A stretch of 64,000 nt of DNA from the NCBI GenBank assembly GCA_002189035.1, contig NEEC01000020.1:1178001-1242000 (forward strand), given 5' to 3'. The DNA comes from Utricularia gibba. Lineage: Eukaryota > Streptophyta > Magnoliopsida > Lamiales > Lentibulariaceae. Both the position numbers and the translations under genes were made by a program. Shown here piece after piece: positions 11,779-37,276 of the stretch; positions within the stretch are counted from its first letter, which is position 1, and each line of letters opens with the position of its first letter. Under the pieces are notes generated by a model. It saw nothing but the letters and a program-made list of their open reading frames with translations. It made no database searches and was not told the origin of the DNA.

Positions 11779-13024
<1,246 letters not shown>

Positions 13025-22055: not shown

Positions 22056-22480
22056 CTACATGCAAGAATTCCAACTCAGAAATTTTATCAGAGCATAACC
22101 TTTGACAAACAAATCACGTCTGTACAGAGAATTAAATCCTAAGGCCCCACCAAACAGCACAGTAGAAACAACAAAGTGAACATTTCGCATAGTAGGGTTT
22201 GTAAATAAATCAGCTTTCATCCCTTTGGATTTAAATTCTATCCCATGTTGATCAGTTAAAATTTCATAAACCTCTTCAGCATTAAAATCATCAGGGTAAT
22301 CAAACAATGAAGTAGCAAATTCATGGGATTCAACATGCTTTTCTGTACAAAATCCTAAAGCTACATTTCATTCAACAATTGATAATGAGAAATTCTTTCT
22401 TAGCAATTTAAATGTAATGGCTGATGGTGCATCAAATTGATAAAAGAATGTGACCTTCAATTCACGCGAGAGAGGGAAAG
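22056..22480 (-). pseudogene. Broken coding stretch, unrecognised, probably retroelement-derived
   Basis: On the minus strand about 140 codons read as protein-like sequence with a single stop (near 22370). It includes 'LKVTFFYQFDAPSAITF', 'FDYPDDFNAEEVYEILTDQ' and 'LFGGALGFNSLYRRDLFVKG'. The composition looks like real protein rather than chance. It sits directly left of the PIF remnant and right of the R2 repeat region, which suggests a retrotransposon ORF, but I cannot name the family. No ATG start can be fixed. Confidence 0.35.
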
Positions 22481-22634
22481 AGGCAGCAACAAATTAAGAT
22501 AAAGAGTGTTTACAAATTTTCTACCATTCTCAAGATTTTGATAAGTATGCTCAGATTAAATTAATGTATGTTGATCACTCTATTTCAGATTTCGACCATG
22601 TTGTGTAGTAATTTTTTTTTTTTTTGTAATTAGA

Positions 22635-23380
22635 ATGATATCAAAATTAGATCTTGTAGTGTTGTTGGTTTTGCACAAAATTCATCTTACCCAATTGTTA
22701 TTATTTGTTGCTATACTTGAATTGTATTATGGGAGAAGACCTACTAAAAAAATAATATTCAATGATTGGAAGTCTTTGTGGACAAATTACGTATTTTGGA
22801 GAAATGTTTTACATAAGTGATCTTGCTTGTTTGGACAATTTAAGAGTGACAAGTGATATTTTTGGAAGATTAGCACACTTTTGCATGATGTTGATGAATT
22901 GAATAATTCTAAGCATGTTAGCTTATCTAAAAAAGTTACTATTTCTTTAGGAGTTTTAGCTCACCATAAAAAGTGCATAATCTCATGATTTTAAGAGATC
23001 TAAATGGACCATCCATTATTATTTTCATGAGATGCTTCAAATGATTTTTAAGTTGCATCCGCTACTTATTGCAAAGCCTCAATGAATTAATGAAAATACT
23101 ACTGATGGACCATGGAAATATTTTAAGGTATGACAGTTGCTAAGAAGTCATAATATAACAACTATGTTTTATTATTTCTTCATGCTTTTGAATTTACAAA
23201 ATGTTATTTGGGAGCTTTGCATGGAACTTATATTCAACCCAAAGTCAATGCAAGTGAGCAGGCACAGTATCGTTGTCATAAATGTTTTGTGTGTGTTAAT
23301 TTTTTAGGTGCATGCAATATAAACATGAATTTTATATATATCTTGTTGGGATGGGAAGGATCATGAGCTATTTTTTTTCC
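22635..23380 (+). mobile_element. PIF/Harbinger (DDE_Tnp_4-type) transposase remnant
   Basis: Across three frames the region follows plant PIF/HARBI1-like transposases. It begins with a leader like 'IFGRLAHFCMML', then 'VSLSKKVTISLGVLAHHKK' and 'FKRSKWTIHYYFHEML' (the helix-turn-helix-like block). Near 23205 'LGALHGTYIQPKVNASEQ' matches the family block around the first catalytic aspartate (usually GAxDGTH), with Asp replaced by His. 'GACNINMNFIYILLGWEGS' near 23310 matches the second catalytic block (usual form ACDFDMxFTYVLxGWEGSAHD). Stops and frameshifts are frequent. No terminal repeats were found. Confidence 0.75.
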
Positions 23381-23563
23381 TTTTATTGCCTCCATTCTAT
23401 GCTATTTGATTTAAAACTGCTTGGCTACACATGAAAAAGTGTGAGGCTTATAGAGAACTAACCCTAATTTATTGACAAAAAGAGAGGGAACAAGTATGAT
23501 TATTGGAGGAAAAACATTTTTGTAAAATAATAGGATGTTATTATATTTTATTATTATGGAATA

Positions 23564-23590
23564 ATAAACCCATGCGGTAGATGGGTTTAT
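23564..23590. repeat. Perfect 10-bp inverted repeat, 7-nt loop
   Basis: ATAAACCCAT, then GCGGTAG, then ATGGGTTTAT. It lies in AT-rich sequence just after the PIF remnant and may belong to a MITE, since the nearby phrase 'accaaacgagtcctaaa' (about 23713) is typical of such ends. Confidence 0.5.
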
Positions 23591-24439
23591 ATTTCACTAT
23601 AGATAGTGAGTTAAATAAGAAAATTTGTTGGGATATATAATCCATAGTGTTATATAAAAATATATCAAACTAATGATTATGATATTTAACATAACACCAT
23701 CTTACACCGTCAACCAAACGAGTCCTAAATCATAAATTTAGTCTATATTATACAGAAAAATACAAATAACACTATAATTACCAAATATTAAAAATCAAAT
23801 TAAAATACCTAATGTTATTATTAAACATCTCAATTTTATAATCTAAAATCATTAATAAAATGTGTATTATCAACTATGCTACAATGAAACTAGATTTGTC
23901 CTCAAATCCAAACTAATACTAGTAGAATCCTAATTTCGACATTACTCATGATAAACATGAATGACTATGTTCTGATTTCAGATAAATGAACCACAAGTGT
24001 GCTTGTTTGCAAATGACAAAGCGATAAACATGAATGACCATGTTGCATCTTCCCAAAGTAACATTCTTCTTGATTTTTGGAGGACTGTAGACGCCGAATG
24101 ATGAATCTTGATGTGTGGAAAAACAGGAGGGATTGAATCAAGGAACACTAGAGCAGATGAAACAAGTAAATGGGTTTAGTGGTTGAATAACCTAAATGGG
24201 TGAGAGGAGAAATCTCAAACCAGATGACAAAGTTGAATGAGCATCTGGAGCAACTCAGATGACAACTCACATCTTGGATAGTCGAGGAAGATATGAATAT
24301 TAATTTTGTTAATTTTCAAGGAAAACCTGTTCAAGGGAATAACTGTGGGAATTGTGGCAACACTTCGCAAACCTAGAAACAAAACCAACAGCGGTCTCAA
24401 CGCCCATTTTTTACGAGATATGCTTAGTCAATAATACAT

Positions 24440-24978
24440 GAATTCTTTTTCTGATGAGTTGATGGTTTATAGCTTGACTTATGATGCATGGAGACATGTA
24501 GGCCTACCCCTTGAGAATGCACAATTTTAGATTAGAGGTGGCAGGCTACTGAAGGAGAAGCTATATTGGGAGAGAAGGATTACAGGTCTCAGGCAACATA
24601 TTCTTGCATTTGATTTGACGACTGAAGTCTATGAATTCATTAGCTATCCACTATTGGTAGAAGGCAGTTTTAGATACCAGAAGTCACTAATAGGAGCTCT
24701 AGGAAACAAGTTATACTTGTTCGTAATTGAGAGTGATAGTTAGAGGGTTGTTATCAGGTACCTTAGTGGAGGAGGAACATGGATAGCAGCTGCTAGGCTT
24801 CTCTTCACTGGAAATCTGTTTGGTCAGTATGTTCTTCCCTACATAACACCCATGTATTGTACATGGGATAGAATTCTGATTTCCTGCAAGCATTTGAGAG
24901 CTTATGGTCTATGGGATTATAGCTTCAGCATGAGGTGCTTTCATAGAGTAAATATAAACTGCTATAGACCCTTGTAGT
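24440..24978 (+). pseudogene. F-box-associated-domain protein, pseudogene fragment
   Basis: From 24561 one frame reads to a stop at 24978 with a single internal TAG (near 24740). The order matches the C-terminal F-box-associated (FBA) domain of plant F-box proteins. 'ILAFDLTTEVYEFISYP' is the hallmark block in which the protein's 'ordinary' output is compared with the gene's query. Then come 'LIGALGNKLYLFVIES', 'YLSGGGTWIAAARL' and 'YGLWDYSFSMRC'. Upstream in another frame 'ELMVYSLTYDAWRHV' (about 24457) is the usual block before it. The F-box itself is absent. Such proteins choose substrates for SCF ubiquitin ligases; this copy is dead. It lies 220 bp from a fragment of an unrelated WD40 gene on the other strand. 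Confidence 0.65.
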
Positions 24979-25201
24979 GGTATGACAGTCTAGTGAGGGT
25001 GTGAGGTTCTACCTTGTTTCCTCTGTAGAGGACAATGCTTTGGCTGACTACTCCTGACTGAAATTGAAGTGACAATTAGACTTGCATATTCCTAGTGTTT
25101 TGTGGCGAGGACATCAAAACAAAAACAAGAAGAAAATGGAGCGGCTAGAGGGGCAGCCTGATTATCCCTGGAGGTCTATGGGCCGAAGTCCCCCTGCATA
25201 C

Positions 25202-25569
25202 CTTCTGCATATCTCGCCATCATCAAACAAGTTCCAGACCTGCGAAACCAGATGCTCTATGTTTGTAGTAAGTAGAGGAGAGGACGAAGGAAGGATTCTG
25301 GTCCTGGTGCACAAGCAAATTGGACCAACCTTCAGCTTGCATTTGGATCCCACAATTGCCAAACTAAAAGGACTATCTTCCGAGAACGAAATGGAAAATA
25401 CAGCGCCCTGAAAAAAATACATAGACTTCTTCTTGATCAGTGCTACCACATCCCTCTTTCTTTGAAATAACATCGGGAGAGGAGGGGAGGGGAGGCATAA
25501 AAAACATACAGCTTTCGGATTTTTGGATGCAACACATGATGGCTGATTTGACAAATCCCATAGTTTAAC
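25202..25569 (-). pseudogene. PWP1-like WD40 gene fragment (three exons with introns)
   Basis: Three short pieces on the minus strand splice in frame. The first, 25510-25569, encodes 'VKLWDLSNQPSCVASKNPKA'. The second, 25330-25407, encodes 'GAVFSISFSEDSPFSLAI' and 'GSKCKLK'. The third, 25202-25239, encodes 'VWNLFDDGEICRR'. Each has AG before and GT after it. Joined, they resemble a WD repeat region near the C terminus of plant periodic-tryptophan-protein-1 (PWP1) homologues, which work in ribosome biogenesis. Because introns are kept, this is a genomic fragment rather than a retrocopy. The preceding and following exons are absent within several kb, so no full protein is made. 'LAIVGSKCK' differs from the usual GGSKGK, a sign of decay. 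Confidence 0.65.
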
Positions 25570-25599
25570 CTACGCAAACAGAGCCACAAATATCAGAGA

Positions 25600-28550
25600 A
25601 AACATCAGTATTCCACTCAAGGGGTTTGATCCAAGAGGTACAAACCGTATTGTCCACAGAGTTTAACATTCAAAGAGACATTGGACAGGTCCTTCAAACT
25701 CTGAAAATCCATATGATTTGATTAGCCATCCATCAAATTAGAGGGTCACAAAATTCAAATGAGATGGACAATTCTAAAACTTTCATTGAAGTTTTAGTTT
25801 AATTTAGACTTTGTTTCTTTCTAGAAGATTTTCCTCTGTCTTCTCTCTGAAACTTTGCTTTCATTTTTTTTTTTGCTTTGTATGAAACTTCATGATTAAA
25901 ACACCTCATTTCTGGATTGAGAGACTCCTAGCTCAATGTTTCGTTAATTGATCTCCATTTTTTCTTTGAATCTAATCAGGTTCCGTATGTCTCCACGCAA
26001 CTATGTTAGAATATTTTTATAACAATCTCTTATTCAGGATTCATGGTTAGTGGACCATTGTCTATGAGTTTTGAAGAAGAGTAAGGTGGAAAACAGCAAC
26101 TCATGCCTTTTTGGTTCAAGGGAGACAACGTTTTGTTTGTGACCGTACTTCAAGATCGATGGACAAATAGTGATCTCCTATGTTGACTCATTGAGCCATT
26201 GACAACACTTGGGCACATGCGTGCAATTCGATCATGAGGGTAATGATGACTGAATCTCTTATCTTCCCGTTCATCCAAGGGGAAGAAGCATCAGGCTATT
26301 CCCGTATTTCCTTGCAAGAGAGTGTAAGGGAAGATAGATAATTTCTTATTCCCATAATCAAGTACTCTAGAAGATCAAAGAAGAGTAGAGACATCAGGAA
26401 CATAATTGGATAGGATTTCAATCCCAAGAACACCTCTTTATTTAAGTTTATTTTTGTTGTTTGTCTAATAATTTCTTTACTCAAGTTTTAGCATATACAT
26501 TTCTACCACCCTTTTACTTTAAAAATTGTATCAGTTGTATTTAGTGTAAACTTCATTATTCTATCGAACACTAACTCCTTGTGTTCGATATCTGTACTAT
26601 ACATTTTGTGTTTTATGAGTTAAAAATCTTAAAATTTTATTATGGAACGATACATATCAGTAAGACATCTGGTTCATTAGCTTAGATTGCTTGTCTCATA
26701 TGGTGAGAGACGAAAAACATTTTGATTCATTTGACACAACTTCTTAGCACTAGTCAAAGTTTATGATATTTGGCAGGATGTAGCCTCATTGAGCATGCTA
26801 CTCTTTCCTCTATCTTACTAGCTAAGCCCCGTTCTTATGGCCTCAATATAGGGAGTGATCTTTGTAGATAGAGAGAATTTCTTAAAAAGGTTTGAGATCA
26901 TTTTCCTTCCCATTACTGACCATTATAGTCTTGAAGTGTAGAATGTAATTAACATTACCTTCATAAAGATGTAGAGGAATGGGTGTAGAGAGTTTAATTA
27001 GAGATGAAAATAATGATCTAATATAAAAAAAAACATGATGTTGTACATGTATATAATATTCAATGATCATTCATGAAGTAAGAAAACAAACAGATAGTAG
27101 CTACAAGGTCTCCAAGAGCATTAAAAATGATAGTTTCTAGAGTTGCAATGCTGATCTCTAATACTTTTTGGAATTCTTTTTAAATCAATCACTACAAAAT
27201 TTTAGTGTTGGATATTTGGTTGTCTCTACAATATGAGATATTTCTATTCTTAAAATCCCTGTTGTTGGTTGAGAAGGTTGCTCATTGTTTACAATTGCAA
27301 TAGGTTGGAGTATCTTCGAATTGATTCAATTTGATGACATTAACTTTATGTGGGTGAGGACTTGTTTTTCGAATCCTTTCATATTTTTTAATCAGTACCC
27401 CATAAGCATTTGTCCAATCCATGCTTCTTTTTTGTGACATAATGGACAAAAAATTGTCTATATGGTTTTTTATTCCATGGATAATATTATATGAACTGCT
27501 CTGCAAATCTTTAATATTCCTAATAGTAAATATAGACTCCACATTATTGAATTGTGTAGTTGTTACATGCTCCTACACTTGTAGGATCACTGTTATGGGA
27601 TTTATACTCTAGAGATTTGTGAAACCAAGGAAATAAACAAAAAAATGATAACCTGAAAAACCAAGAGAACATGGGATATCCTCATATAATGTAAAAAAAT
27701 TTCATTAATAAAAAGTTGGATTAAAAAATAATATTACTAAAAAAATCATTAAAAATTGATGGTCAACAAAATTTAATATAGTTCTTCTATTTAAATCTCC
27801 TTCTCCCAAAAAATTACCAAAAGCCCTTTCTCTTTTTTCCCTCATATATCTATCCAAAGATGGGATAGTTGGTGGGTATTTTCCTTTTTACCCCATGTTT
27901 TTAGGAAAATTAATTGTCATCTCCTTGAAAGAACTACTAGAATGACAACTCACGATCTCTTGACTTGCAAAACTTTTTCGCAGTTTTCATAGCCTTATTA
28001 GGTTGAGCTCCTTGTCTATACAACTCATTAGGTTGCATATCCCAAAAGCTTATCTCCAATTAGAACCTTTAAGGCTTATCATGCAGTGATTACTATATTT
28101 TCCTCGAGGGGTTCCCTTGAGTCTTCCTACAAAGTTCTTGTTGTGTCTTATCAACTTGAATCTTCCTAATGATATCTTTGACTTTATTCCTCCATTATAA
28201 GAATCATGCAATGAGTCTTTTCCACCATAGGATTTGGTTTCATAACTCTAATATGGTTCCTCACAAGATCATATATCATCTTAGATATATAGAAAAAAAT
28301 ATTCCTAAATGCTTTACTATAGTAGATTTCTAACCATAGGGTACATCCTCTTGAGTTATTGTCCAAGTCCTATCATAAGGCATGCATCTTAGTATAATAT
28401 TATGAGATTGTTAATGTGACTTGCACTAACATGAATAATTTATGTTGAATGTCATGTATAATTGAAATATCAGGTTGAGCATACTGCTTTTCAAGTCAAT
28501 CCCATGTCAATTAACCTGTTTTAGCATTTTTAAAATTATTCACCAACTAA
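25600..28550. other. AT-rich spacer, no recognised gene
   Basis: Minus-strand stretches at 27282-27542 ('INKxHIDNF'-like, lysine-rich) and 28184-28366 look weakly protein-like, but I cannot assign them to a family. The rest holds nothing I can support. Confidence 0.3.
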
Positions 28551-29373: not shown

Positions 29374-29724
29374 AATTGAGATTTAGAAGTGTAGAATGAA
29401 GCAGTAAGAGAGCTGCTACTGCAGCTTGATGTATTGAAATTGAAAGAGTGTAAAATTCAGGGTTACTACCCTATATCCATACAAGATGAATTCTTTCTCT
29501 ATTTATACACAGAAATTCGACCATTGCTTTTGTCCTTTTATTTTGCACACGTGACTTCTAGCCGTTGCACTCTTGGGCTTGGGCTTGGCTTTATGGACTA
29601 GTGAACTCATAGTATTCTTCATTTGGTTCAGCCCATATGATGTCTTGGTCAGCCCAATTGCAAATGTCGCCATCTGTCTTCCACTTCGCAGGAGCAACAT
29701 CACTATGGTTTTGGAGATTCAACA
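29374..29724 (-). repeat. 3' LTR of copia M
   Basis: 351 bp, about 95% identical to 36926-37276 by eye. On the minus strand it begins TGTTGAATC and ends CTCAATT, so the 3' end is not the usual CA. GATTT lies just outside. Confidence 0.9.
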
Positions 29725-36925: not shown

Positions 36926-37276
36926 AATTGAGATTTAGAAGTGTAGAACGAAGCAGTAAGAGAGTTGCTACTGCAGCTTGATGTATTGAAATTTAAAGAG
37001 TGTAAAATTCAGGGTTACTACCCTATATCCATACAAGATGTATTCTTTCTCTATTTATACACAAAAATTAGATCGTTGCTTTTGTCTTTTTATTCTGCAC
37101 ACGTGACTTCTAGCCGTTGCACTCTTGGGCTTGGGCTTGGCTTTATGGACTAGTAAACTCATAGTATTCTTCATTTGATTCAGCCCATACGATGTCTTGG
37201 TCAGCCCAATTGCAAATGTCACCATCTGTCTTCCACTTAGTGGGAGCAACATCACTAGGGTTTTGGAGATTCAACA
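36926..37276 (-). repeat. 5' LTR of copia M
   Basis: Direct repeat of 29374-29724 with the same length. GATTT follows on the plus strand at 37277-37281. The primer site lies immediately inside at 36911-36925. Confidence 0.9.

What the first reader, a model, noticed from the sequence alone, without database searches (positions are those of the whole stretch)
24440..25569. Fragments of two unrelated genes side by side, one with its introns
An F-box-associated pseudogene (plus) and three exons with introns of a PWP1-like WD40 gene (minus) lie about 220 bp apart, with no full copy near. Kept introns exclude a retrocopy. This is the pattern left by Helitrons or Pack-MULEs that capture gene pieces, or by segmental duplication followed by loss.
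Basis: partly seen in the sequence, partly recalled or inferred. Interest (0 to 1): 0.6.

Follow-up and report, generated by a model that had tools for sequence, protein, structure and literature searches.

The report
Patchwork pseudogene in plant repeat DNA
A broken piece of two neighbouring plant genes (an F-box gene and the tail of a WD40 gene, PWP1) sits inside an old retrotransposon remnant, most likely copied there by sloppy repair of a chromosome break rather than carried by a gene-capturing transposon; this is ordinary plant genome turnover.

Summary
The same fused segment exists at two other places in the held genome (C402, 93%; C304, 92%), in the same order and with the same intergene. 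Both copies run on into the full F-box 5' half. The three copies are equidistant, neutrally decaying, and share no common ends. So the two genes were already convergent neighbours before copying. No Helitron or MULE ends were found. In the window, the fragment is one tile of a ~1.62 kb patch that replaces ~86-150 bp inside a single solo LTR. The tiles are an order-swapped gag piece, the F-box/PWP1 piece, and a 79-bp piece 92% identical to DNA 206 kb away. Two junctions show 3-5 bp microhomology; no target-site duplication was seen. Best reading: a segmental duplicate reused as filler during double-strand break repair. The intact parent pair was not found, and the held 100 Mb may not be the whole genome. 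Known kind, low interest.

The parts
24437..25004 (+). 3' half of an F-box / F-box-associated gene, pseudogene: TAG at 24528, 24741, 24975; ancestral stop TGA 25002-25004
25005..25158 (.). convergent intergene between the F-box stop and the PWP1 stop, shared by all three copies, no other repeat match
25159..25246 (-). PWP1 last coding exon (exon 15) with stop at 25159-25161
   Evidence: coordinates read from the sequence
25328..25414 (-). PWP1 exon 14 (GAVFSISFSEDSPF...), 86% DNA identity to the full gene
25504..25569 (-). PWP1 exon 13 (VKLWDLSNQPSCVASKNPKA), 85% DNA identity
25636..25661 (-). scrap of PWP1 exon 12 and its donor site, 26/26 identical to the C402 copy; right limit of the gene segment
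24116..24290 (+). patch tile 1a: gypsy-type retrotransposon gag-region DNA (downstream piece 'B'), 76% to C2:3310822
24280..24432 (+). patch tile 1b: gag-region piece 'A', which lies upstream of B in two relatives; order swapped here
25662..25740 (+). patch tile 3: 79 bp, 92% identical to C317:1410222-1410300 (minus), 206 kb away on the same contig
24047..24118 (+). left remnant of a ~1.35 kb solo-LTR family (5' ~230 bp missing)
25736..26665 (+). right remnant of the same LTR copy, ending ...CATATCA
24023..24044 (+). 22-bp copy (one mismatch) of window 23950-23971, abutting the truncated LTR: templated-insertion-like

Best explanation
An F-box gene and a PWP1-type WD40 gene once stood tail to tail, about 150 bp apart. 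A segment carrying the F-box gene and the last exons of PWP1 was duplicated to at least three places; the C402 and C304 copies are long (~4 kb shared), the window copy short. At the window locus the segment arrived as filler: a double-strand break inside an old solo LTR was repaired by copying several ectopic templates in series (gag-region DNA, then the F-box/PWP1 segment, then a 79-bp piece related to DNA on the same contig), with loss of about 86-150 bp of LTR (synthesis-dependent strand annealing, or polymerase-theta-type end joining with template switches). Shown: three copies, same internal junction, non-coincident ends, neutral decay, LTR interrupted and collinear, tile order. Inferred: that the genes were native neighbours, that the patch formed in one event, and the repair pathway.
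For: Two further copies with the same F-box/PWP1 junction, 92-93% identical. C402 and C304 copies share ~4 kb beyond the window's left limit, mostly at 94-95%. Star-like divergence: private substitutions 39/32/43, K2P 0.072-0.085. Codon positions 19/22/15 and dN/dS 0.8-1.4, and lesions private to each copy, so the F-box gene was probably intact when copied and has drifted since. The LTR family is a real LTR: about 1.26-1.35 kb with exact 5-bp TSDs in several copies. The window LTR halves are collinear in many relatives, with only 86-217 bp between them there, against 1.6 kb here. Tiles abut, with microhomology of 3 bp (TGG) at the LTR/gag join and 5 bp (AATTA) at the last join. Tile 3 differs from its relative by 7.6% (6/79), close to the F-box divergence. 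A 22-bp templated duplicate lies at the left edge. The mechanism is established in plants (PMC3445842; PMC10923293).
Against: No intact adjacent parent pair found; the one complete PWP1 gene (C255) has no F-box neighbour, and it aligns at only ~63% over the region with introns, so it is a paralogue, not the direct source. The gag donor is not identified (best 76-80%). Microhomology at the gag/F-box and PWP1/tile-3 joins is unclear. Sequential small insertions cannot be separated from a single event.
Confidence: 0.66

Rival explanations
1. Helitron or Pack-MULE capture: a DNA transposon picked up both gene pieces and carried them to three loci.
For: Mosaic of gene pieces with introns, several copies in the genome.
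Against: Copies share neither end. No inverted pair longer than 33 nt (76%) in 22.5-28 kb. The single CTRR+hairpin found at 24876 is inside F-box coding sequence. No transposon sequence between or around the pieces that is common to the three copies.
Confidence: 0.06
2. Plain segmental duplication only: the window once had the long ~4 kb copy, later eroded by deletions and nested transposon insertions, with no patch.
For: C402 and C304 copies are long segmental duplicates, and both were broken later by insertions.
Against: The fragment lies between two collinear halves of one LTR copy, so the LTR was there first; the flanking tiles are unrelated to the C402/C304 flanks.
Confidence: 0.22
3. Retrotransposon-mediated capture by template switching of reverse transcriptase onto an F-box read-through transcript (PWP1 antisense, hence unspliced), producing a chimeric LTR element.
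For: LTR, gag pieces and F-box are all on the + strand; antisense introns would be kept.
Against: The insertion lies inside the LTR, no second copy of the chimera was found in the held genome, and the C402/C304 copies show ordinary genomic flanks.
Confidence: 0.05

Closest known systems
Gene fragments moved as filler DNA in double-strand break repair (SDSA 'patching' of non-collinear genes, described in grasses; PMC3445842 and the work it cites)
   Same: Ectopic gene pieces with introns, at a transposon site, with target deletion and decay to pseudogenes
   Different: Donor parent not located here; one segment carries two convergent genes and is joined to two other tiles
Polymerase-theta (TEBICHI) templated insertions at plant breaks (PMC10923293)
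   Same: Short microhomology joins, fillers copied from flanks and elsewhere, a 22-bp local templated copy
   Different: Fillers here are up to 1.2 kb, longer than typical theta insertions (own knowledge)
Helitrons and Pack-MULEs (gene-capturing transposons)
   Same: Mosaic gene fragments with introns
   Different: No terminal features, no shared ends

Membership tests
Double-strand break filler / SDSA patch | Insert lies inside a pre-existing sequence with a target deletion and no TSD | tested here: met
   LTR halves collinear, 86-150 bp missing, no repeat framing the insert seen
Double-strand break filler / SDSA patch | Filler copied from ectopic loci that still exist | tested here: met
   C402/C304 relatives of the gene segment; C317:1410222 relative of tile 3; gag donor not found
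Double-strand break filler / SDSA patch | Microhomology at joins | tested here: inconclusive
   3 and 5 bp at two joins, unclear at the others
Helitron | 5' TC and 3' hairpin plus CTRR ends, copies sharing ends | tested here: not met
   only CTRR+hairpin is internal to the F-box CDS; ends of the three copies differ
Pack-MULE | Long terminal inverted repeats with 9-11 bp TSD | tested here: not met
   no inverted pair longer than 33 nt at 76% in 22.5-28 kb
Processed retrocopy | Introns removed, poly(A) tail | tested here: not met
   PWP1 introns with canonical splice sites retained
Segmental duplication | Same two genes adjacent in the same order elsewhere with extended homology | tested here: met
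   C402 and C304 copies; the extended homology is between those two, the window copy shares only the core
Segmental duplication | Intact parental locus | tested here: inconclusive
   not in the 100 Mb held, which may be incomplete

The most novel reading that the evidence does not exclude
The chimera arose by reverse-transcriptase template switching onto a read-through F-box/antisense-PWP1 transcript, so that a retroelement captured gene sequence with introns kept.
Probability: 0.04. Interest if true: 0.45.

Novelty: new member of a known kind. Interest (0 to 1): 0.17.

Why it matters
It is a compact worked example of how gene fragments with introns move in a plant genome without a gene-capturing transposon, and it warns that side-by-side gene pieces should be checked for sister copies before being called Helitron or Pack-MULE cargo. 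It has little further consequence.

Tried and rejected
A Helitron-end scan and an inverted-repeat search gave no ends. A Pfam scan of the three window frames alone was nearly empty and phmmer against PDB with the raw PWP1 frame gave nothing; the homology only became clear through the sister copies and the full gene. The start 'TC' where the C402 and C304 copies first seemed to begin (L021rc 3947 / L022 3754) looked like a Helitron 5' end, but it is the 5-bp target duplication TCGTG of a young LTR element in the C304 copy. C255 PWP1 as direct parent was rejected: no F-box neighbour, exons only ~86%, introns hardly alignable. No other plant genomes were available in the collections offered, so synteny of the parent pair could not be tested.

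Full report
What is there. The window is part of a plant genome, held as 100.09 Mb in 516 contigs (C317:1178001-1242000). Window 24437-25661 contains two gene pieces facing each other. On the plus strand, 24437-25004 is the 3' half of an F-box gene; on the minus strand, 25159-25661 holds the end of a PWP1 gene. The F-box part is 85-86% identical over 187 aa to a fuller copy elsewhere, and that fuller copy has a clear F-box domain (4.5e-9) and a weak FBA_1 match. PWP1 exons 15, 14 and 13 are present with introns and splice sites, plus a 26-bp scrap at exon 12. The complete PWP1 gene in this genome lies at C255:1953280-1956420 and was checked as PWP1 by its best PDB match.

Sister copies. The segment occurs twice more: C402:2121113-2122271 (-), 93%, and C304:938922-939990 (+), 92%. 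All three have the same F-box/PWP1 junction and the same 154-bp intergene. Outside the window's limits, C402 and C304 stay homologous for about 4 kb: the F-box 5' half with its ATG, an upstream stretch, and repeat-rich DNA beyond it. The C304 copy was later split by a 5.1 kb LTR retrotransposon (244-bp LTRs, 99.2% identical; target duplication TCGTG). The C402 copy has a 1.19 kb insert that C304 lacks. On the PWP1 side, the C402 copy runs into a repeat family near L021:3988 and C304 stops at L022:5492. The three copies therefore share a core but no ends.

Age and decay. Private substitutions are 39, 32 and 43, K2P 0.072-0.085: a star, not a nested tree. In the F-box frame they fall 19/22/15 on codon positions 1/2/3, with dN/dS 0.8-1.4. 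The window's three TAG stops and the deletions of C402 (~29 bp) and C304 (40 bp) are each private. So the F-box gene was probably intact when the copies separated, and the copies have drifted without constraint. This argues that the source was a functional neighbour pair, not an already broken transposon cargo; that step is inference.

The window site. The flanks are repeats. Left of 24014 are an internally deleted Harbinger-like element and other high-copy repeats. The fragment itself lies between 24047-24118 and 25736-26665, two pieces of one LTR family. That family is a ~1.35 kb LTR mostly seen solo, with exact 5-bp target duplications in several copies. In many relatives the same two pieces are separated by only 86-217 bp, so they are read here as one LTR interrupted by about 1.62 kb with a small deletion. 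The insert consists of abutting tiles: gag-region DNA of a gypsy-type element (24116-24432), with its two halves in swapped order relative to two relatives (element class from weak Pfam matches, and own reading); the F-box/PWP1 segment; and 79 bp (25662-25740) 92% identical to C317:1410222-1410300. The first and last joins show 3 and 5 bp of microhomology; the middle ones are unclear. At the far left a 22-bp copy of nearby sequence (23950-23971 repeated at 24023-24044) abuts the truncated LTR.

Mechanism. Multi-donor filler with a target deletion, microhomology at some joins, a local templated copy and no target duplication is what break repair by ectopic copying leaves in plants (SDSA filler: PMC3445842; theta-mediated templated insertions: PMC10923293). 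Transposon capture predicts shared ends and terminal features; neither was found. Plain segmental duplication explains the C402 and C304 copies but not the interrupted LTR in the window. A retroelement template switch onto a read-through transcript cannot be fully excluded, since PWP1 introns would be antisense there, but the chimera is single-copy in the held genome and sits inside an LTR.

Limits. The held genome may be incomplete (its total is just over 100 Mb), so the absence of the parent pair is weak evidence. No other plant genome was available for synteny. Whether the patch arose in one event, and which polymerase made it, are inferences.

Noticed in passing
window 22440-23728: Internally deleted PIF/Harbinger-like element; three longer relatives on C2, C304 and C1 have ~2 kb more between the same two parts. 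Transposase match only weak (PF13359, 0.025).
   Followed up: partly
L044 2665-7758 (C304:933164-938257): Young LTR retrotransposon, 244-bp LTRs 99.2% identical, target duplication TCGTG, inserted in the C304 sister copy.
   Followed up: yes
L014 and L015 (C317:1540.6 kb and 1519.1 kb): Two loci of 3203 bp are letter-for-letter identical 21.6 kb apart: a very recent duplication or an assembly artefact.
   Followed up: no
C304:860-1000 kb, C402:2.12 Mb, C460:97-130 kb: The repeats upstream of the F-box copies, some foldback-like (516-bp self-inverted), cluster in these regions.
   Followed up: partly
window 29374-29724 and 36926-37276: A 351-bp direct duplicate at 95% identity.
   Followed up: no
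window 12437-12712 (-): WD40 coding stretch resembling RACK1 (own reading), unrelated to the PWP1 piece.
   Followed up: no
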